From: Prauserella flavalba
Lineage (GTDB): Bacteria; Actinomycetota; Actinomycetes; Mycobacteriales; Pseudonocardiaceae
Direction of reading: 5' to 3'
DNA: 64,000 bases
Assembly (NCBI RefSeq): GCF_003202235.1
Contig: NZ_MASU01000009.1
Span: 250,501 to 314,500 of the forward strand
The notes under the pieces were generated by a model, which saw only the letters and a program-made list of their open reading frames with translations, did not search any database and was not told where the DNA came from. A program made the position numbers and the translations under genes. Shown here piece by piece: positions 1,916-49,915 of this stretch (position 1 is its first letter; each line of letters begins with the position of its first letter).

Positions 1916-2304
1916 GCGAGTCGTGCACTCAGGTTCGCGAGTCGTACGTTCCGGGGCGCGAGTCGTGCACTCCGGCGCGCGAGTCGTGCATTCCGGACGG
2001 CGAGTCGTGCATTCCGGGGCGCGAGTCGCCCACTCGGGACAACGCAAGGCACCCCCAGGTCGCCCCGAACCCGAACGCAGTGAAGGCCACCTTCACTGCG
2101 TTGAACGCAGGGAGGGTGGCCTTCACTGCAGCGAGCGCGTCCCGGGCGGGCCCCGGTGCCCCAACGGGGAACTCGCGGGCCCGAGCGGGGACTCGCGAAC
2201 CGGAGCGCACGACTCGCGAACGGGAGCGCACAACTCGCGAACGGGAGCGCACAACTCGCGCGCTGGAGTGCACGACTCGCGAACGGGAGTGCACGACTCG
2301 CGGG
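1916..2304. repeat. Convergent 21-bp repeat arrays (locus 1) filling the transporter/response-regulator gap
   Basis: This fills most of a 455-bp gene-free stretch. The left arm has six units with CGAGT at 1917, 1938, 1959, 1980, 2001 and 2022, exactly 21 bp apart. Typical unit core: CGCGAGTCGTGCACTCC. The right arm has seven units in the opposite orientation, with ACTCGCG at 2171, 2191, 2212, 2233, 2254, 2275 and 2296. The last right-arm unit ends directly against the stop codon of the response regulator (2305-2307). Each well-kept unit contains its own dyad, GAGT-CGTGC-ACTC. Between the arms are about 130 bp that hold a separate palindrome. Read as RNA from the minus strand, the arms could pair into one long hairpin. 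The 21-bp period leaves reading frames open by chance, so the apparent ORFs here are not genes. Confidence 0.9.
2077..2129. repeat. Palindromic element with AAGGCCACC core, inside repeat locus 1
   Basis: Perfect 15-bp arms GCAGTGAAGGCCACC (2077-2091) and its complement (2115-2129) enclose a second stem, CTGCG-TTGAA-CGCAG (2096-2110). The AAGGCCACC core and the TGAACGCA loop recur in the ftsZ terminator hairpin at 12362-12414, so this is a small repeat family. There is no T-tract here, so terminator function at this copy is less clear. Confidence 0.8.
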
Positions 2305-22785: not shown

Positions 22786-24242
22786 GCGTTATCGCCTTCC
22801 AGTAGCGAATCGGCCACGCGCCACAGCTCGGCGACCTTCGAGGCCTTCACCAGAACGACGTCGTCGGGACGCAGCTCGCCGCGCAGCAGCGCGACGGCGG
22901 CGTCGGTGTCGGGCACCAGGACCGACTCCTCTCCCCAAGAACCCTCGTGGCTCGCGCCGTGATGCATGGCCGCGGCCTCCTGGCCGACCACGACGAGCCT
23001 GCTGATGTTGAGCCGGACGGCGAGCCTGCCGATCTCGTCGTGCGCGGACACGGTATCCGCCCCGAGCTCGCCCATCACACCGAGTACCGCCCACGAGCGG
23101 CGCTGCTTCGCCATCGACGCCAGCGTCTTGAGCGCGGCCCGCATCGACTCCGGGTTGGCGTTGTAGGAGTCGTTGAGGACGGTCACGCCGTCCGCGCGGG
23201 TCGTGACCTCCATGCGGCGCGCGGAGCGGCGCTGCGCGGCGGACAGCCGCCGCGCGACGTCGGCGATCGGCGAACCCAGCTCCAGCGCCACGGCGGCGGC
23301 CGACAGCGCGTTGCCGACGTGGTGCTCCCCGAACAGGCCGAGCGTCACGTCGGCCTCGCCCTGCGGGCTGACCAGCCGGAACGACGCGCGGGCCTGCTCG
23401 TCGAGGCGCACGTCCTCGGCGCGCACGGTGGCGTCCGGGTGCTCGCCGACCCCGACGATCCTGGCCTTCGTGCGCGCCGCCATCGCGGCGACGAGCGGGT
23501 CGTCGAGGTTGAGCACCGCGACGCCGTCGGCGGGAAGCGCCTCGACGAGCTCGCCCTTGGTCTTGGCGATGCCCTCGCGGGAGCCGAACTCACCGACGTG
23601 CGCGCTGCCGACGTTGAGCACCACGCCGATGCGCGGGGGCGCGACGGCCGCCAGCTCGGCGATGTGACCGGGCCCGCGCGCGGAGAGCTCCAGCACCAGG
23701 TGGCGGGTGCTCTCGTCGGCGCGCAGCGCCGTCCACGGGTGGCCGAGCTCGTTGTTGAACGAACCCGGCGGGGCGATGGTCGGCCCGAGCGGCTCCAGCA
23801 GCTGCGCGATCAGGTCCTTGGTGGACGTCTTGCCCGACGAGCCCGTGACGCCGACGACCGTGAGCCCGCCCTCGGCGAGCCGGGTGACCACGTGCCGGGC
23901 GAGCTTGCCCAGCGCGGCGAGCACGGCGGCGCCGGAGCCGTCGGTGTCGCCCGCCAGCGCGACCGAGCGCTCGTGGGCCGCGCCCGGCGGCAGCGGCGGC
24001 ACGATCACGGCGGGCGCGTCGACCTCGCGGGCGGCCAGCACCCCGGCGGCGCCCACCTCGATCGCGCGCGCGGCGAACGTGTGCCCGTCCACCCGCTCGC
24101 CGGGCAGCGCGACGAACAGCCCGCCCTCGGTGAGCTGCCGGGAGTCGAACTCGACCGACCCGGTGACGCGCTCGCCGCCGTCGGTGTTGTGCAGCCTGCC
24201 GCCGACGACGTCGGCGATCTCGGCCAGGCTCAGCGCGATCAC
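22782..24242 (-). CDS. murF: UDP-MurNAc-tripeptide:D-Ala-D-Ala ligase
   Basis: Adds D-Ala-D-Ala to complete the pentapeptide. A 486-residue ligase: N-terminal substrate domain with [37 protein letters not shown] for [12 protein letters not shown], and [15 protein letters not shown] in the C-terminal part. It overlaps murE and mraY by four bases each, so translation is coupled. Confidence 0.97.
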
Positions 24243-25834
24243 ACGGTCACCTCGAGTTTGTCGCGGATGGCTGCCTCCAGCTCGTCGCGGTCGGAGAAGG
24301 GGTGGACCACACCGGCGACCTCCTGGCCGGTCTCGTGGCCCTTGCCCGCCACGAGCACCACGTCGCCGGGGCGGGCGCGCTCGACGGCGGTGACGATGGC
24401 CTCGCGACGGTCGCCGATCTCCAGCACCTCACCGCCTCGGGCGGGGCTGACGGCGCGCGCGCCGTGCAGCATCGCGGCCCTGATGGCGGCGGGATCCTCG
24501 CTGCGGGGGTTGTCGTCGGTGACGATCACCAGGTCGCTGCCCCTGACCGCGGCCTCGCCCATCATCGGGCGCTTGGCGGTGTCGCGGTCGCCGCCGCAGC
24601 CGAGGACGGTGATGATGCGGCCCTCGGTGCGGGCGCGCAGCGCCTGCAGCGCCTGGGTGACGGCGGCGGGCTTGTGGGCGTAGTCGACGACGGCCGTGAA
24701 CTCCTGGCCGAGGTAGACGCGCTCCATGCGGCCGGGCACCTCGACGCTCGCGAGTCCCTCGACGATGTGCTCCAGCGGCACGCCCGTGGTGTCGAGGATC
24801 GCGGCGGCCAGCGCGGCGTTGGCGACGTTGAACTCGCCCGGCAGCGGCAGCGTCGCGGTCGCGGTGCGGCCGTCGGGGTGGTGCAGCACGAAGGACTGCT
24901 CGCCCGTGCCCGTGATCGCGATGTCGGAGGCACGCCACACGGCCTTGGTGCCGGGCTCGGTCGACACGGTCACGGTCTGCGGGGTCACCAGCTGCTGGCC
25001 CCACGCGCTGTCGACCACCACGGCCTCGTGCGTGGACCGGCCGTCGAACAGCAGCGACTTGGCGGCGAAGTACTCCTCCATGTCGCGGTGGAAGTCCAGG
25101 TGGTCCTGGGAGAGGTTCGTGAAGGCGCCGACGGCGAAGCGGGTGCCGTTGACGCGGCCCAGCGCGAGGGCGTGGCTGGAGACCTCCATCGGCACGTGCG
25201 TGACGCCCTGCTCGGCCATCACCGCGAACAGCGCCTGCAGGTCGGGGGCCTCGGGGGTGGTGAAGGCGCTGGCGAGGCGCTCGCCCGCGATACGTGTCTC
25301 GACCGTGCCGATGAGGCCGGTGATCCGGCCCGCCGCGCGCAGACCCGACTCGACGAGGTAGGCGGTGGTGGTCTTGCCGGAGGTGCCGGTGATGCCCAGC
25401 ACGGCGAGTTGCAGCGACGGCTCGCCGTAGATCCACGCGGCGATCTCGCCGAGGACCGCGCGCGGATCGCTGTGGACGAGCACGGGGAGGTCGGTGTCGC
25501 GCAGCGCGGGGCGCTCCGCGCCCGCCTCGTCGGTGAGGATCGCGGCGGCGCCCGCGGAGATCGCGTCGGCGGCGAAGTCGGCGCCGTGCGCGCGGGCGCC
25601 GGGCAGCGCGGCGAAGAGGTCACCGGGGATCACGTGCTGCGCACGCAGCGTCGCACCGGTCAGCGCGATCTCGGCGGCGGCCGGGTCGGCGATCAGGCGG
25701 GCATCGGCGCGCGCGACCAACGTCGTCAGCGGCACCGGTTCGATGCGGTGCGGACGCGGCGGCGCGACGACGGCCTTGGCCGGGCTGTCCGGAACCCGCC
25801 CTGCCTGGGCGGACTCGTCCTTGTTGACAGACAC
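24239..25834 (-). CDS. murE: UDP-MurNAc-tripeptide synthetase, meso-DAP type
   Basis: Adds the third stem-peptide residue. A 531-residue ligase with GITGTSGKTTTAYLVESGL for ATP and, decisively, the TDDNPRSEDP motif that recognises meso-diaminopimelate, so the wall is DAP-type. The extra N-terminal 30 residues before IEPVPLTTL are low complexity. It is the first cell-wall gene of the block. Upstream, where mraZ-mraW-ftsL-ftsI would be expected, lie a repeat array and the end of the Mce4 operon. Confidence 0.97.
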   Translation of the reverse strand: MSVNKDESAQAGRVPDSPAKAVVAPPRPHRIEPVPLTTLVARADARLIADPAAAEIALTGATLRAQHVIPGDLFAALPGARAHGADFAADAISAGAAAILTDEAGAERPALRDTDLPVLVHSDPRAVLGEIAAWIYGEPSLQLAVLGITGTSGKTTTAYLVESGLRAAGRITGLIGTVETRIAGERLASAFTTPEAPDLQALFAVMAEQGVTHVPMEVSSHALALGRVNGTRFAVGAFTNLSQDHLDFHRDMEEYFAAKSLLFDGRSTHEAVVVDSAWGQQLVTPQTVTVSTEPGTKAVWRASDIAITGTGEQSFVLHHPDGRTATATLPLPGEFNVANAALAAAILDTTGVPLEHIVEGLASVEVPGRMERVYLGQEFTAVVDYAHKPAAVTQALQALRARTEGRIITVLGCGGDRDTAKRPMMGEAAVRGSDLVIVTDDNPRSEDPAAIRAAMLHGARAVSPARGGEVLEIGDRREAIVTAVERARPGDVVLVAGKGHETGQEVAGVVHPFSDRDELEAAIRDKLEVTV

Positions 25835-25889
25835 GCGGGAAGGTTACCGGCGCGGCACTCGGCTCCTGGAAGCGGTGCAGCCCCTCGCG

Positions 25890-26204
25890 CGAGTCCCCCG
25901 CTCCTGCCCGCGAGCCCCCCACTCGGAGCAGCGAGTTCCCCGCTCCAGCGCGCGAGTCGTGCACTCCCGTTCGCGAGTCGTGCGTTCCCGCTCGCGAGTC
26001 GTGCACTCCCGTTCACGAGTCGTGCACTGGAGACGGCGAGTTGTGCGTTCACGGTGGCCCGCGGATTTCGCGGCGGCTCCGAACGCACAACTCGCGCGCC
26101 CGAACGCACGACTCGCGGTCCCGAACGCACGACTCGCGGTCCCGAACGCACAACTCGCGGTCCCGAACGCACGACTCGCGCGCTGGAGCGGGCGACTCGC
26201 GGGG
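25890..26204. repeat. Convergent 21-bp repeat arrays (locus 2) between the Mce4 operon and murE
   Basis: This fills most of a 370-bp gene-free stretch. The left arm has eight units, with the CGAG step at 25890, 25911, 25932, 25953, 25974, 25995, 26016 and 26037, all exactly 21 bp apart. The right arm has six inverted units, with ACTCGCG at 26090, 26111, 26132, 26153, 26174 and 26195, also exactly 21 bp apart. The final unit touches the stop codon of the last Mce4 gene (26205-26207). A short GC-rich dyad, CCGCG-GATTT-CGCGG, lies between the arms. Units share the core CGCGAGTCGTGCACTCC with locus 1. Units nearest murE are most decayed. Confidence 0.92.
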
Positions 26205-27029
26205 TCAGAGGCCCGCCAGGGCCGCGATCCTCCACTCGCCGCCGACGCGCTTGGCGACCACGGCCAGCGCGGCGCTCGTGGTCTCCTGGCGGCCGGCGTC
26301 ACCCGGATGGAGGGTCTGCTGGTCGACGAGGGCCAGCACGCGCGCCTCGTCGCCGGTCAGCTCCTGCACGCCGATCGAGCGCACCGTGGTGGTGCGCACC
26401 AGGCGCTGTTCGCGCGCCTGCGCCGACGCCGCCGCGAAGCTCGCCTCGTACTGGCCCACCGCCCGCTCCACCAGCACGCGGCCGGCCGCGCGCTCGGTGC
26501 GCTCGAGGTTGTTGTAGTCGTAGGAGAAAATCGCCTTGAGTCCCGTGCTCACCTGGTCGGCGACCTCGCGCGTCGCGGCGTCGTCCGCCAGCGCGACGTT
26601 GCCGCCCGGGTCCCGCAGCCGCTGCGCCTCCAGCGCCGACCACACCGCCACGCCCACCGCCAGCACCAGCACCGCGGCCAGCACCGCCATGATCGTCGCC
26701 CGCCTGGCCGGCATCCCCGCGACCCGCCCGGCCGCGGCGGCACCGGCAGTCGGCTCGCGGTCCCGCTCCGGCTCCGCGGCGTGCTCGGCCGCCGGATCCA
26801 GGTCCCGCTCCCGCTCCGGTTCGGGGTTCCGCTCCGAGGCCGGGTCTCGCTCCGCTTCGGGTTCCCGCTCGGCCGCCTCCGGCTCCCGCGCCCGTGCGGC
26901 ATCGCTCGCCGACGCCGCGAGGCCCTCCCGGTCCGCAGGACGGGAGCCCGCGGCGCCCCGCGCGAACGGCGACGGCACCCGCCGCCGCACCATCTCCTCC
27001 GCTCCGGCCTCGGTACCCGGCTCGCTCAT
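26205..27029 (-). CDS. Mce-associated membrane protein (Mam4B-like)
   Basis: A 274-residue bitopic protein. The cytoplasmic N-terminus contains an unusual Glu/Arg/Pro stretch of about 45 residues (48-92, repeats of the type EPE-R-E). A membrane helix follows (about 112-130, TIMAVLAAVLVLAVGVAVW), then an extracytoplasmic domain (about 135-274) of the Mce-associated fold. Homologues stabilise Mce transport complexes, and its place as the last gene corresponds to mam4B of mycobacteria. It overlaps the previous gene by four bases. Identity rests on position and fold more than on motifs. Confidence 0.83.
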   Translation of the reverse strand: MSEPGTEAGAEEMVRRRVPSPFARGAAGSRPADREGLAASASDAARAREPEAAEREPEAERDPASERNPEPERERDLDPAAEHAAEPERDREPTAGAAAAGRVAGMPARRATIMAVLAAVLVLAVGVAVWSALEAQRLRDPGGNVALADDAATREVADQVSTGLKAIFSYDYNNLERTERAAGRVLVERAVGQYEASFAAASAQAREQRLVRTTTVRSIGVQELTGDEARVLALVDQQTLHPGDAGRQETTSAALAVVAKRVGGEWRIAALAGL

Positions 27030-27508: not shown

Positions 27509-28749
27509 CGGGGCAACCCCAGCAGCGAGCCGACACCACCGGACCCGGACCCGCCGAGCAACCCGAGCAGACCGGGCAGCGCGTCGTCGCGCGGCTGCCC
27601 GTCCGTGGGCTGCGTGGAGCTCTGTTCGGGCACGTCCACCGGCACGCCCGCGTACGGCGCGTTCTGCGCGCCGCGCACACTGCTCGGGCTGCCGGGCGGC
27701 TCCGCGCAGTACGCCTCGGTGTTGGCGGGCAGTTCCCGGGTGTCCTCGGCGCGCCGCTGCTGCGTGCCCTCGTAGCCGCGCGTACACGAATAGGGGTCGA
27801 ACAGGTTCAGCACGAATCCGAGGTGGCCTTCGCCGCCCGAGGTCACCGAGCGCGTGAACGCCGAGATCACCGGGTAGGCGACGAGCAGCTGCTCGATCGC
27901 GTCGACACGGGCCGTGGTGATCGTGGACGTCGTGAGCAGATTGGCGATCACGACGCCGAGGTCGGTGCCGGACACGGCGAGCACGTCGCTGACCTCTCGG
28001 CTGAGCTTGGGCGCCTCGTCGATCACCTTCCGCAGGTCCGGGTCGGCGCCCTTGAGCTGCCCCGCGATGGTGCGCAGCCCCTCGGCGATGGCCATGATGT
28101 CGCCGCTCTGCCGCCGCTGCGTGTCGAGCACGACGCGGCCGTCGGCGAGCAGTGCCCGTGTCTGGGGCAGGTTCTCGGTGGCCGTGGCGGTGAACGAGCC
28201 CGCCGCGTCGAGCAGCTGCTGCAGCTCGGGGCCCGCGCCCGCGAACGCGTCGTAGGTCTCGTCGACGACCGTGCGCAGGGAGCCGGGATCGACGCTGGCC
28301 ACCAGCTTGTCGAGGTTGGCCAGCACGGTGTCGGGCGCGAGCGGGATGGACGTGCGTTCCTGCGTGATCACCGAGCCGTCCTCGAGGTAGGGGCCGTTCT
28401 GGTGACGCGGGACGAGGTCGACGTACTGCTCGCCGACCGCCGACCGGTTCGACACCCTCGCCTCGGTGTCGGCCGGGATCGGCTCCGCCCCGGACTCGAC
28501 GTCGAGGGTCAGCTCGACGCCGTGCTCGGTGAGGTTCATCGCCACGACCCTGCCGACCGCTACACCCCGGTAGGTCACCTCCGCGTTCACGAAGATGCCA
28601 CCGGAGTCGACCAGCCGCACGGTCACCGCGTAACCGCGCGTGCCGAAGAGCCGGTCCAGCCCCGCGTAGCTGATGCCCGCGTAGAGCACGGACACCACGG
28701 CGATGACCACGAACGCGAGGAGCTTGATCCGGTGCCGTCCGGTGAGCAT
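27505..28749 (-). CDS. mce4F: Mce-family protein, MceF
   Basis: A 414-residue subunit of the hetero-oligomeric Mce tunnel. Signal anchor IKLLAFVVIAVVSVLYAGISY, then an MlaD/Mce domain (VRLVDSGGIFVNAEVTYRGVAVGRV ending in GEQYVDLVP), then long helices (about 140-310). The last 90 residues are rich in Pro, Gln and Gly. Position sixth in the mce series fixes the F assignment. Confidence 0.92.
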   Translation of the reverse strand: MLTGRHRIKLLAFVVIAVVSVLYAGISYAGLDRLFGTRGYAVTVRLVDSGGIFVNAEVTYRGVAVGRVVAMNLTEHGVELTLDVESGAEPIPADTEARVSNRSAVGEQYVDLVPRHQNGPYLEDGSVITQERTSIPLAPDTVLANLDKLVASVDPGSLRTVVDETYDAFAGAGPELQQLLDAAGSFTATATENLPQTRALLADGRVVLDTQRRQSGDIMAIAEGLRTIAGQLKGADPDLRKVIDEAPKLSREVSDVLAVSGTDLGVVIANLLTTSTITTARVDAIEQLLVAYPVISAFTRSVTSGGEGHLGFVLNLFDPYSCTRGYEGTQQRRAEDTRELPANTEAYCAEPPGSPSSVRGAQNAPYAGVPVDVPEQSSTQPTDGQPRDDALPGLLGLLGGSGSGGVGSLLGLPR

Positions 28750-29903
28750 CAGCCACCACCTCCCAGCAGCCCGCCGAGCAACCCGCCCAGCACGCCGCCC
28801 TCCCGTGACTCGGTGGCGGGCGGGTTCGTCTCCGGCAGCGGCAGCGCGGGCGGCGCGGGGCCGCCGAGGTCGAGGGACGGCGGCTGGATCGGCGGCTGGG
28901 AGGAGTTGGTGAAGTTCTGCAGTAGCAGGTCGAGGTTGAGGTCGACGCGCGCGGTCACGTTCGCGTAGTCGCCCCTGATCACCGCGCCCGCCGCGTCCGG
29001 GAACGGGTAGGTGGGCAGGATCTTCAGCGCGGTCGGCAGGTCGGTGCCCGCCTCGGCGAGCTTCTCCAGCGTCGGCGCGAGCGCGTGCAGGTTGGCGACC
29101 AGTTCCTCGCGGCTGGCGTTGATGGTGTCGGTGGCGACGCCGGAGAGCGTGTCGAGCGACCGCAGCATCCCGACGAGCTGGTCGCGCTGCGCGGTCACCA
29201 CCCGCAGCCCCGGTTCGAGGTGGTCGAGGGCGGTGGTGAGATTGCCGGTCTGCGCGACGAGGGTGCTGGAGAGCCGGTTGAGCCCGTCGATCGCGCGGAT
29301 GATCTCCCCCTTCTGCCCGTCCAGCTCGGTCGCGAGCTCGTCGACGCGCGAGAGCAACGCCCGCACCTCGGCCTCGTTGCCGGACAACGCCGCGTTGAGC
29401 TCCTCGGTGATCGTGGACAGCTGCTCGATGCCGCCGCCGTTCAGCAGCAGCGACAGCGCCCCGAGCACCTCCTCGACCTCGGGGTTGCGGTTGGTGCGCC
29501 CCAGCGGGATGCGCGCGCCGTCGGCGAGCGTGCCGGTGGCCCGTTCGCTCGAGGGCGGGCCCAGCTCGACGAACTTCTCCCCCAGCAGGCTCGACTGGCG
29601 CAGCCGGGCGTCGGCGTTGGCGGGCAGCACCACGTCGCCGTTGACGGCGAGGGTGACGATCGCCGACTTGGTGTCCTTCGCCAGCTCCACCTTCTCCACG
29701 CGGCCCACGGCCACGTCGTTGACCTTCACGGCGGCCTGCGGCACCAGGTCGAGCACGTCGGCGAACTGCGCCGTGACGCGGTACGGGTGGTCGCCGAGGT
29801 CGGCGCCGCCGGGCAGGGGCGTGTTGTAGAGCCCGCCGAAGCCGCCGTCACCGCAGCCGGCGAGCAGCACGCAGGCGGCGAGGGCGGGGAGCAGTCGTCT
29901 CAT
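28749..29903 (-). CDS. mce4E: Mce-family lipoprotein, MceE
   Basis: A 384-residue lipoprotein: signal peptide with lipobox LLAGC (acylated Cys17), Mce domain (about 45-120, AAVKVNDVAVGRVEKVEL, GEKFVELGP), helical region and a Pro/Gly-rich C-terminus. Start ATG at 29903, sharing one base with the mce4D stop (TGATG). In mycobacteria MceE (LprN-like) is the lipid-anchored member. Its stop shares one base with mce4F. Confidence 0.93.
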   Translation of the reverse strand: MRRLLPALAACVLLAGCGDGGFGGLYNTPLPGGADLGDHPYRVTAQFADVLDLVPQAAVKVNDVAVGRVEKVELAKDTKSAIVTLAVNGDVVLPANADARLRQSSLLGEKFVELGPPSSERATGTLADGARIPLGRTNRNPEVEEVLGALSLLLNGGGIEQLSTITEELNAALSGNEAEVRALLSRVDELATELDGQKGEIIRAIDGLNRLSSTLVAQTGNLTTALDHLEPGLRVVTAQRDQLVGMLRSLDTLSGVATDTINASREELVANLHALAPTLEKLAEAGTDLPTALKILPTYPFPDAAGAVIRGDYANVTARVDLNLDLLLQNFTNSSQPPIQPPSLDLGGPAPPALPLPETNPPATESREGGVLGGLLGGLLGGGG

Positions 29904-31087
29904 CAGCCCGTCTCCAGCGGTGTCGTCAGCAGGTCGACCACCGGCAGCGGCAGGGGCGGCAGCTTGCCGTTCTGCAGCGCGTTGAGCGTCTCCGGCAGCG
30001 AGGGCAGCCGCAGGGTCTCGTCGAAGAACGGCGCGAGGCCGCGGCACAGGTCGCCGAGCGTGTCGGGCAGCTGAGCCGGGGAGCCCGCGCTGACGAGCCT
30101 GCACAGGGTCTCCATCAGCGGGTGCGCGAGCTCGTTGGCGTTGTAGCGCACCTGGATGCTGCCGGACGCCGCGTCGTAGGTGTTGATGAAGTTGGTCATG
30201 CCGGTCGGGCCCACGTCGAGCACCTCGGCGAGCGCGGCCCGCTGGTCCACGAGCACGCCGGTGATCCCCGCGAGCTTGTCCACATTGGAGGAGAGAAGGT
30301 CCCTGTTGTCCTCGACGAACCGCCGCACCTCGGTGAGCGATCCGCCCAATGCGGACAGTGCGGCCGCCACGTCGCCGGAGTCCTCGGCGAGGAAACCGGT
30401 CACCTGCGCGAGCCGATCGTAGAACTCGGTGAGCTGCGCGTCGCTCTGCGCGAGGGTCGAGGTGAACGTCTGCAGGTTCCGCACGGTGGCGAAGAGGTCA
30501 CCCTTGGAACTGTCCAATGTGGTCGCCAGCTCGGCGAGCCGGGTGATGGTGGTGTTGAGGTTCTTGCCGTTGCCGTCCAGATTGGCCGCGGCGGTGTCGA
30601 GCACGTCGGACAGTGCGCCGCCCGAGTTGGCGCCGTCGGGGCCGAGGCTCGTGGACAGCTCGTTGAGGCTGTCGTAGAGATCGTCGAGCTCCACCGGGGT
30701 CGCGGTGCGCTCGCGCGGGATCACGGCCCCGGCCGCCAGCGCGGGCCCGGTGTCGTAGGCGGGGGTCAGCTGCACGTACCGGTCGCTCACGAGGCTCGGC
30801 GCGACCACGACGGCGCCCGCCCCCTCGGGGACCGGGACGTCCACCTCCATGTCCACGCGCACCGCGCCGCCCTCGGGCTTGACCTCCGTGATCTGCCCGA
30901 CGGGGACACCCAGCACGCGCACCGACGAGCCCGCGTAGAGCCCGACGGTGCGGTCGAAGTAGGCGGTGATCCTCGTGCCGCCCTCGCGCGTGAGCCACCA
31001 CAGCGCGGAGGCGAGCACGAGCACGGCCACGCACGCCATCGCGAGCCAACTGTAGAGGCTGCGCCGGGCTCTCGTGTCGACGGTCAT
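29903..31087 (-). CDS. mce4D: Mce-family protein, MceD
   Basis: A 394-residue Mce subunit. Anchor helix WLAMACVAVLVLASALWWL, Mce domain ITAYFDRTVGLYAGSSVRVLGVPVGQI to SDRYVQLTP, then a helical barrel-forming stretch with heptad-like repeats and a Cys pair late in the helical part (ETLCRLV, GDLCRGL). It shares one base with both neighbours, so translation is tightly coupled. Confidence 0.92.
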   Translation of the reverse strand: MTVDTRARRSLYSWLAMACVAVLVLASALWWLTREGGTRITAYFDRTVGLYAGSSVRVLGVPVGQITEVKPEGGAVRVDMEVDVPVPEGAGAVVVAPSLVSDRYVQLTPAYDTGPALAAGAVIPRERTATPVELDDLYDSLNELSTSLGPDGANSGGALSDVLDTAAANLDGNGKNLNTTITRLAELATTLDSSKGDLFATVRNLQTFTSTLAQSDAQLTEFYDRLAQVTGFLAEDSGDVAAALSALGGSLTEVRRFVEDNRDLLSSNVDKLAGITGVLVDQRAALAEVLDVGPTGMTNFINTYDAASGSIQVRYNANELAHPLMETLCRLVSAGSPAQLPDTLGDLCRGLAPFFDETLRLPSLPETLNALQNGKLPPLPLPVVDLLTTPLETG

Positions 31088-49748: not shown

Positions 49749-49758
49749 GAAAAGAGAG

Positions 49759-49915
49759 TACTGCCGCGCGCAGCGCGTCCTTGGGGGGCGGCGGCCGGGT
49801 GACGGGAGGGCGTACTGCCGCGCGCAGCGCGTCCTTGGGGGGCGGCGGCCGGGTGACGGGAGGGCGTACCGCCGCGCGCAGCGCCTCCTGGGGGCCGCGG
49901 CCGCACGCCAGGAGG
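49759..49915. repeat. 54-bp tandem repeat between sulfurtransferase and acuC
   Basis: Three copies begin at 49759, 49813 and 49867 (TACTGCCGCGCGCAGCGCG, last copy TACCGCC). The first two are identical, 54 bp apart; the third is partial and decays into the hairpin that abuts the sulfurtransferase stop. The 166-bp gap holds little else. On the minus strand the last bases lead into the acuC start, so promoter or leader function is likely. Confidence 0.9.
49884..49915 (-). terminator. Hairpin directly after the sulfurtransferase stop
   Basis: CCTCCTGG (49884-49891) and CCAGGAGG (49908-49915) form an 8-bp stem starting at the base after the stop codon, with a GC-rich 16-base loop that itself holds CCGCGG. 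No T-run. Likely transcript end or 3' protection. Confidence 0.5.

What the first reader, a model, noticed from the sequence alone, without database searches (positions are those of the whole stretch)
25890..26204. Second copy of the facing 21-bp array at the Mce4/murE junction
Eight plus six units at exactly 21 bp, the same inverted layout, and the same abutment to a stop codon (26205). Two independent loci with one architecture argue against chance. Here it separates a large catabolic operon from essential cell-wall genes on the same strand, so it may insulate transcription.
Basis: partly seen in the sequence, partly recalled or inferred. Interest (0 to 1): 0.8.

Follow-up and report, generated by a model that had tools for sequence, protein, structure and literature searches.

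The report
Phased repeat arrays at operon ends
Many operons in this actinobacterium and some relatives end in a short DNA repeat array close behind the stop codon, whose place and spacing are kept while its letters differ between species, and which may act as a barrier that ends transcription.

Summary
The array is real: eight units (25889-26050) face six (26081-26200) at exactly 21 bp, 4 nt from a stop codon. It is not a second copy of one element but one of 37 arrays found in 2.06 Mb of this Prauserella genome; the family reaches other genera (57 of 249 sampled Pseudonocardiaceae genomes match, 23 with ten or more matches). Of 100 arrays placed in seven genomes, 58 lie between convergent genes, 41 between tandem genes at operon boundaries, 0 in divergent gaps, 1 inside a gene call (not checked). 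Positions are kept (8 of 8 testable arrays also in P. endophytica); the unit's middle triplet is species-specific. Distances between facing arms cluster at multiples of 10.5 bp, strongly in this genome and P. endophytica, weakly elsewhere; nine held-out cases agree overall. Arms of one array do not pair better than swapped arms (worse in this genome), and many arrays have one arm, so a long RNA hairpin is not what is kept. Best explanation: phased protein-binding arrays acting on DNA as transcription-end barriers; no protein, binding or transcript was seen. Here the array separates the Mce operon from a conserved promoter-like stretch of murE, so insulation is plausible but untested.

The parts
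25889..26050 (+). Left arm: eight 21-bp units (core GCGAGTYNNNCRYTC), pointing right
26051..26080 (.). 30-bp centre (near 3 x 10.5) with a possible 5-bp-stem hairpin; a similar centre is seen in P. endophytica (by eye)
26081..26200 (-). Right arm: six 21-bp units, sense-oriented to the Mce operon, starting 4 nt after its last stop codon
26205..27029 (-). Last gene of the Mce operon before the array, Mce-associated by position only (274 aa; its one Pfam match is far below the cut-off)
24239..25834 (-). MurE-type Mur ligase downstream (531 aa, three Mur ligase domains)
25835..25870 (-). Promoter-like stretch of murE with TAACCT (25841-25846) six bases before the GTG start; conserved by eye in the four Prauserella genomes, so murE may be leaderless with its own promoter
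1916..2035 (+). First array of the window, left arm, six units
2203..2301 (-). First array, right arm, five units, 3 nt after the stop of a response-regulator gene (2305-2964)

Best explanation
The arrays are a dispersed family of DNA elements at the 3' ends of operons. Each unit (GCGAGTYNNNCRYTC plus six spacer bases) holds two inverted half-sites (GARY, five bases, RYTC) and repeats every 21 bp, two helical turns, so all copies of an arm lie on one face of the DNA; the two arms also tend to keep a fixed helical relation. Most likely a sequence-tolerant DNA-binding protein covers the array and acts as a barrier to RNA polymerase: between convergent genes it separates opposing transcripts, and between tandem operons (as here, Mce operon and murE) it keeps readthrough off the downstream promoter. 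Shown: anatomy, location, positional conservation, species-specific turnover, arm phasing (firm in the close pair of genomes, weak beyond). Inferred: the protein, its binding, the barrier effect.
For: Location: 58 convergent, 41 tandem, 0 divergent, 1 inside of 100 arrays; divergent gaps are 148 of 424 gaps of 80 bp or more in the first G000 set. First unit within 12 nt of the stop in 71 of 103 sense-facing ends and 5 of 8 in the held-out stretch. In 39 of 41 tandem pairs the array ends 38-508 nt before the next start (the other two: 1 and 16), against a median tandem gap of 16 in G000. Maintenance: 8 of 8 G000 arrays with an orthologous adjacent pair in P. endophytica have an array there; of 166 comparable pairs one more has an array, in P. 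endophytica alone. DNA level: distances between facing arms give best period 10.5 in a 6-26 bp scan in G000 (n=17, R=0.78) and in the other genomes (n=25, R=0.60); all 51 R=0.66; without the G002 set 43, R=0.62 (best period 10.6), reached by 0 of 2000 jittered sets; held-out nine, V-test p=0.004. Two clusters modulo 21 (near 0 and near 10) are not what decayed units in register would give. In G237 half-sites vary coherently within themselves and nearly independently of each other. Own arms pair worse than swapped arms in G000 (16 arrays, counted).
Against: No protein, binding or transcript data. Only a minority of operon ends carry arrays, so they are no general terminator. In G153 arms mostly point outward and the unit next to a stop is antisense in 7 of 8 ends. 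Outward gaps in G237 (17, 6, 21, 9, 59) and G153 (28, 8, 7, 7) do not share the inward phase. Phasing outside the close pair G000/G002 is weak: 17 distances from G001, G237 and G067 give R=0.47, p=0.022, best period 10.75; G001 alone (4) shows none. Held-out 120 and 213 fit badly. Arrays may share descent, so p-values are too small. The middle triplet changes between species, unusual for a fixed binding site. Arm lengths correlate in G000 (Spearman 0.54, p=0.024), not clearly in G002 or G237, which could hint at pairing.
Confidence: 0.37

Rival explanations
1. RNA-level terminator or 3'-end protector: the transcribed arms fold into a long stem, or the sense arm is a C-rich Rho loading site just behind the last ribosome.
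For: The arms here fold far better than shuffles; 17 of 29 G000 arrays have two facing arms; the unit next to a gene end is sense-oriented in 97 of 123 ends within 60 nt; one-arm arrays in tandem pairs are sense in 15 of 20; last units are T-richer at position 7 than first ones.
Against: Own arms pair worse than swapped arms in G000 (inner units -79.7 against -88.6 kcal/mol, p=0.004; outer p=0.058), same sign in G237 (p=0.25 and 0.039), no difference in G002. 12 of 29 G000 and 17 of 19 G067 arrays are not facing two-arm arrays. The unit's halves hardly covary as an RNA stem in G237 (p=0.04 in the pairing direction, and 0.27). 10.5-bp phasing has no obvious meaning for RNA. G153 ends are antisense.
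Confidence: 0.27
2. Neutral or selfish tandem repeats that slip, spread by recombination and survive only in 3' gaps.
For: Patchy distribution: G237 has 292 matches, 15 other sampled members of its genus at most 2; units are homogenised per species; arm lengths vary widely.
Against: 0 of 99 placed arrays in divergent gaps; kept positions; first-to-last gradient at position 7 (C in 129 of 134 first units, T in 79 of 134 last units); phasing; no match in plasmid or phage records; no Y1 (REP-type) transposase in 10 of 10 array-rich genomes.
Confidence: 0.2
3. Topological element: DNA wrapped by gyrase or a nucleoid protein to absorb positive supercoils between converging genes, as discussed for BIMEs.
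For: Convergent ends preferred; arm spacing near one helical turn; E. coli gyrase sites show phased 10-bp G/C variation, lie downstream of active operons and are enriched in BIME-2 (PMC6379681, abstract and passages). A/T bases of the centres hint at the lattice of the arms (n=391, p=0.059).
Against: A/T content inside the unit has no significant 10.5-bp component in any of seven genomes (permutation p 0.09 to 0.64). The same paper finds gyrase placement downstream of operons not hard-wired in sequence.
Confidence: 0.13

Closest known systems
REP/BIME elements
   Same: Dispersed, extragenic, in facing pairs; proposed roles in supercoiling, termination and mRNA stability (PMC3733652, abstract in the listing); preference for 3' ends recalled
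   Different: Those are 20-40 bp palindromes; here tandem 21-bp units with phased arms and no Y1 transposase in 10 of 10 array-rich genomes
Sal-box/TTF-I and Reb1 terminators of eukaryotic rDNA (recalled)
   Same: Repeated short oriented sites behind a transcription unit that a DNA-binding protein turns into a roadblock
   Different: Eukaryotic rDNA; here many bacterial loci and no protein known
Intergenic TAACTGA direct repeats of Beggiatoaceae (PMC4679880, abstract in the listing)
   Same: Many dispersed sets of short direct repeats between genes of a bacterium
   Different: 7-bp units, other lineage, proposed as post-transcriptional
LexA (SOS) box of Gram-positive bacteria (recalled)
   Same: G237 units often read CGAAC-N5-GTTC
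   Different: LexA boxes have N4 and lie in promoters; resemblance only

Membership tests
REP/BIME | 20-40 bp palindromic unit forming a hairpin | tested here: not met
   Units are direct 21-bp repeats; the two halves hardly covary as a stem in G237
REP/BIME | Associated RAYT (Y1) transposase | tested here: not met
   PF01797 in 0 of 10 array-rich and 1 of 9 array-poor genomes
REP/BIME | Dispersed and extragenic, at 3' ends | tested here: met
   58 convergent, 41 tandem, 0 divergent, 1 inside of 100
Intrinsic (hairpin plus U-tract) terminator | Paired stem followed by a T run | tested here: not met
   No T run after the arms at this locus (by eye); arms not kept for pairing in G000; other loci not scanned for T runs
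Known Rfam RNA | Match above gathering score | tested here: not met
   0 matches in the window; three weak ones, E 0.33 or more, around the array
Gyrase site | Phased ~10-bp G/C variation | tested here: inconclusive
   Not significant within units (p 0.09-0.64); borderline in centres (p=0.059)
Protein roadblock terminator | A protein binds the repeats and stops polymerase | not testable with these tools
   No binding or transcript data

The most novel reading that the evidence does not exclude
A bacterial counterpart of oriented roadblock terminators: helically phased binding-site arrays that close operons across Pseudonocardiaceae, read by a DNA-binding factor, with the sites rewritten genome-wide in step within each species while their places stay put.
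Probability: 0.25. Interest if true: 0.85.

Novelty: new variant of a known kind. Interest (0 to 1): 0.6.

Why it matters
How high-GC actinobacteria keep neighbouring operons apart is not well understood (recalled). A family of phased arrays, kept in place at operon ends, would give a directly testable DNA-based answer. The species-wide change of the unit's middle triplet at many unlinked loci is also a striking case of concerted evolution in bacteria that needs a mechanism.

Tried and rejected
Long hairpin as the kept structure: not supported by the arm-swap test. Small hairpin in each unit (GAGU/RYUC): variation in G000 looked wobble-compatible, but in G237, where both halves vary, they are nearly independent. 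Gyrase-type signal: not significant in the unit, borderline in centres. Coding role of the 7-codon period: variation not synonymous in a frame (by eye, no call). REP/RAYT: no transposase. Rfam: nothing. Plasmids and phages: no match (the low-complexity filter may hide arrays). Literature: nine searches; judged by their listings none is about these arrays. One search (six literal strings) listed 11 papers with unrelated titles; I looked into one (PMC4785625): a primer. Only open-licence PMC papers were searched.

Sampling and limits: regions of G237, G067 and G153, and C3 and C5:120-240 kb of G000, were fetched because arrays were listed there; C2:1-400 kb, C9:190-314 kb and C5:240-1440 kb were taken as runs. 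Gene calls come from my own codon-usage caller. Arrays in the eight short loci were used for phasing only; three of the eight gave no two-arm array under my rule. I had seen unit positions of some of those loci in earlier listings, so that part of the held-out test was not blind.

Full report
Observation. The array is as described: eight units at 21-bp steps (25889-26050), a 30-bp centre, six units on the other strand (26081-26200), and a stop codon that starts 4 nt further on. The first array of the window (1916-2301) has the same plan with other letters. The upstream gene (26205-27029, minus strand) ends an Mce operon (MlaD and Mce4_CUP1 domains in the protein at 28749-30104), and the downstream gene is a Mur ligase of MurE type.

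A family, not a second copy. The exact 15-base core occurs 443 times in the 8.09-Mb genome and never in the reversed control. In 2.064 Mb read in stretches I found 37 arrays: 29 in 1.264 Mb and 8 in 0.8 Mb. A wider two-unit pattern with a free middle triplet matches in 57 of 249 genomes sampled from the family, 23 of them with ten or more matches, and in none as control. Nine genomes in five genera have more than 190 matches. The distribution is patchy: G237 has 292, while the 15 other sampled members of its genus have at most 2.

Placement. Of 100 arrays in seven genomes, 58 lie between convergent genes, 41 between tandem genes, 1 inside a called gene (not checked) and 0 between divergent genes. 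Stop codon to first sense-facing unit is 12 nt or less in 26 of 36 ends in G000, 11 of 15 in G002, 2 of 5 in G001, 0 of 1 in G003, 12 of 24 in G237, 19 of 21 in G067 and 1 of 1 in G153. In tandem pairs the array marks an operon boundary: in 39 of 41 the gap left to the next start is 38-508 nt, against a median tandem gap of 16. Before murE, a stretch with GGTAACCTTCC(C/G)GC-GTG is conserved in all four Prauserella genomes, also the one without an array (by eye); it looks like the promoter of a leaderless murE transcript.

Place kept, letters not. Between G000 and G002 (P. endophytica), 8 of 8 G000 arrays whose flanking genes are adjacent in both have an array in G002; G002 has one more (166 comparable pairs). 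With G001 it is 2 of 4. Positions 8-10 of the unit are species-specific: GTG in 181 of 229 units of G000, CTG in 76 of 77 of G067, CCA in 196 of 367 of G237 and 32 of 51 of G153, CCC in 39 of 102 of G002 and 14 of 44 of G001. At the murE junction G002 has GCG or GCC in both arms where most G000 units have GTG, while the CCC units at the murE side are shared. The first unit of an arm has C at position 7 in 129 of 134 arms, the last has T in 79 of 134.

RNA or DNA. The unit reads GARY-N5-RYTC. In G237, where both halves vary, bases within a half are tightly coupled (p about 2e-50 and 9e-22), and the two halves nearly independent (p=0.04, in the pairing direction, and 0.27). Arms of one array pair less well than arms exchanged between arrays in G000 (16 arrays; inner units p=0.004, outer 0.058), with the same sign in G237 (9 arrays; 0.25, 0.039) and no difference in G002 (6 arrays). 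In G000 12 of 29 arrays and in G067 17 of 19 are not facing two-arm arrays. So a long stem is not what is kept. The number of bases between facing arms instead clusters at multiples of 10.5: the best period of a 6-26 bp scan is 10.5 in G000 (n=17, R=0.78) and in the other genomes (n=25, R=0.60), while 21 is weak. With the phase noted beforehand, four new G000 arrays gave 0, 11, 21 and 22; with five more from G002 and G001 (65, 94, 105, 120, 213) the V-test gives p=0.004. All 51 give R=0.66; the 43 without the G002 set, many of them orthologues of G000 arrays, give R=0.62 at 10.5 (best 10.6), reached by 0 of 2000 jittered sets. Exact-unit positions read by hand outside the fetched runs give 127, 97, 33 (G000) and 10, 20, 61, 33 (G002): six of seven within 2 bp of the phase, 61 off by 2.5 (that locus reads 65).

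Limits of the phasing. Outside the close pair it is weak: 17 distances from G001, G237 and G067 give R=0.47, p=0.022, best period 10.75; G237 alone p=0.011 (two values from one array); G001 alone nothing. Outward-pointing arms in G237 and G153 do not share the phase. Shared descent makes p-values optimistic. In G153, 7 of 8 gene ends see antisense units first, so a polar model fails there. A/T content in the unit has no clear 10.5-bp component; in centres it is borderline.

Mechanism. I take the arrays as phased binding sites for an unknown DNA-binding protein that forms a barrier at operon ends (0.37). Shown: anatomy, placement, maintenance, phasing in the close pair. Inferred: binding and barrier. 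RNA-level termination, neutral repeats and a topological role remain.

Known systems. REP/BIME elements share dispersion and placement, not unit structure or transposase. No Rfam family matches. Nine paper searches listed nothing on these arrays. PMC6379681 was seen as abstract and passages, PMC4785625 as one passage; all others as listings.

Noticed in passing
window 2073-2129: Centre of the first array holds 1.9 copies (81% alike) of a 30-bp hairpin-like repeat, consensus GAACGCAGGGAAGGCCACCTTCACTGCGTT.
   Followed up: no
window 25835-25870: Promoter-like stretch with TAACCT directly before the murE GTG start, conserved by eye in four Prauserella genomes: murE may be leaderless.
   Followed up: partly
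G237 loci L136-L155: Array-bearing genes end in TAA in 14 of 18 ends (background of that genome not computed), and units often read CGAAC-N5-GTTC, one base longer than a LexA box (recalled).
   Followed up: no
G000 C5:640001-1440000: Array density falls to 8 in 800 kb against 16 in the 520 kb before it, though part of the latter was chosen for its arrays.
   Followed up: no
window 49758-49903: 54-bp tandem repeat, 2.7 copies, 94% alike, in the gap between two gene calls on the minus strand.
   Followed up: no
L172-L175 (G153): Arrays with arms pointing outward, gaps 7, 7, 8 and 28 bp between them.
   Followed up: partly
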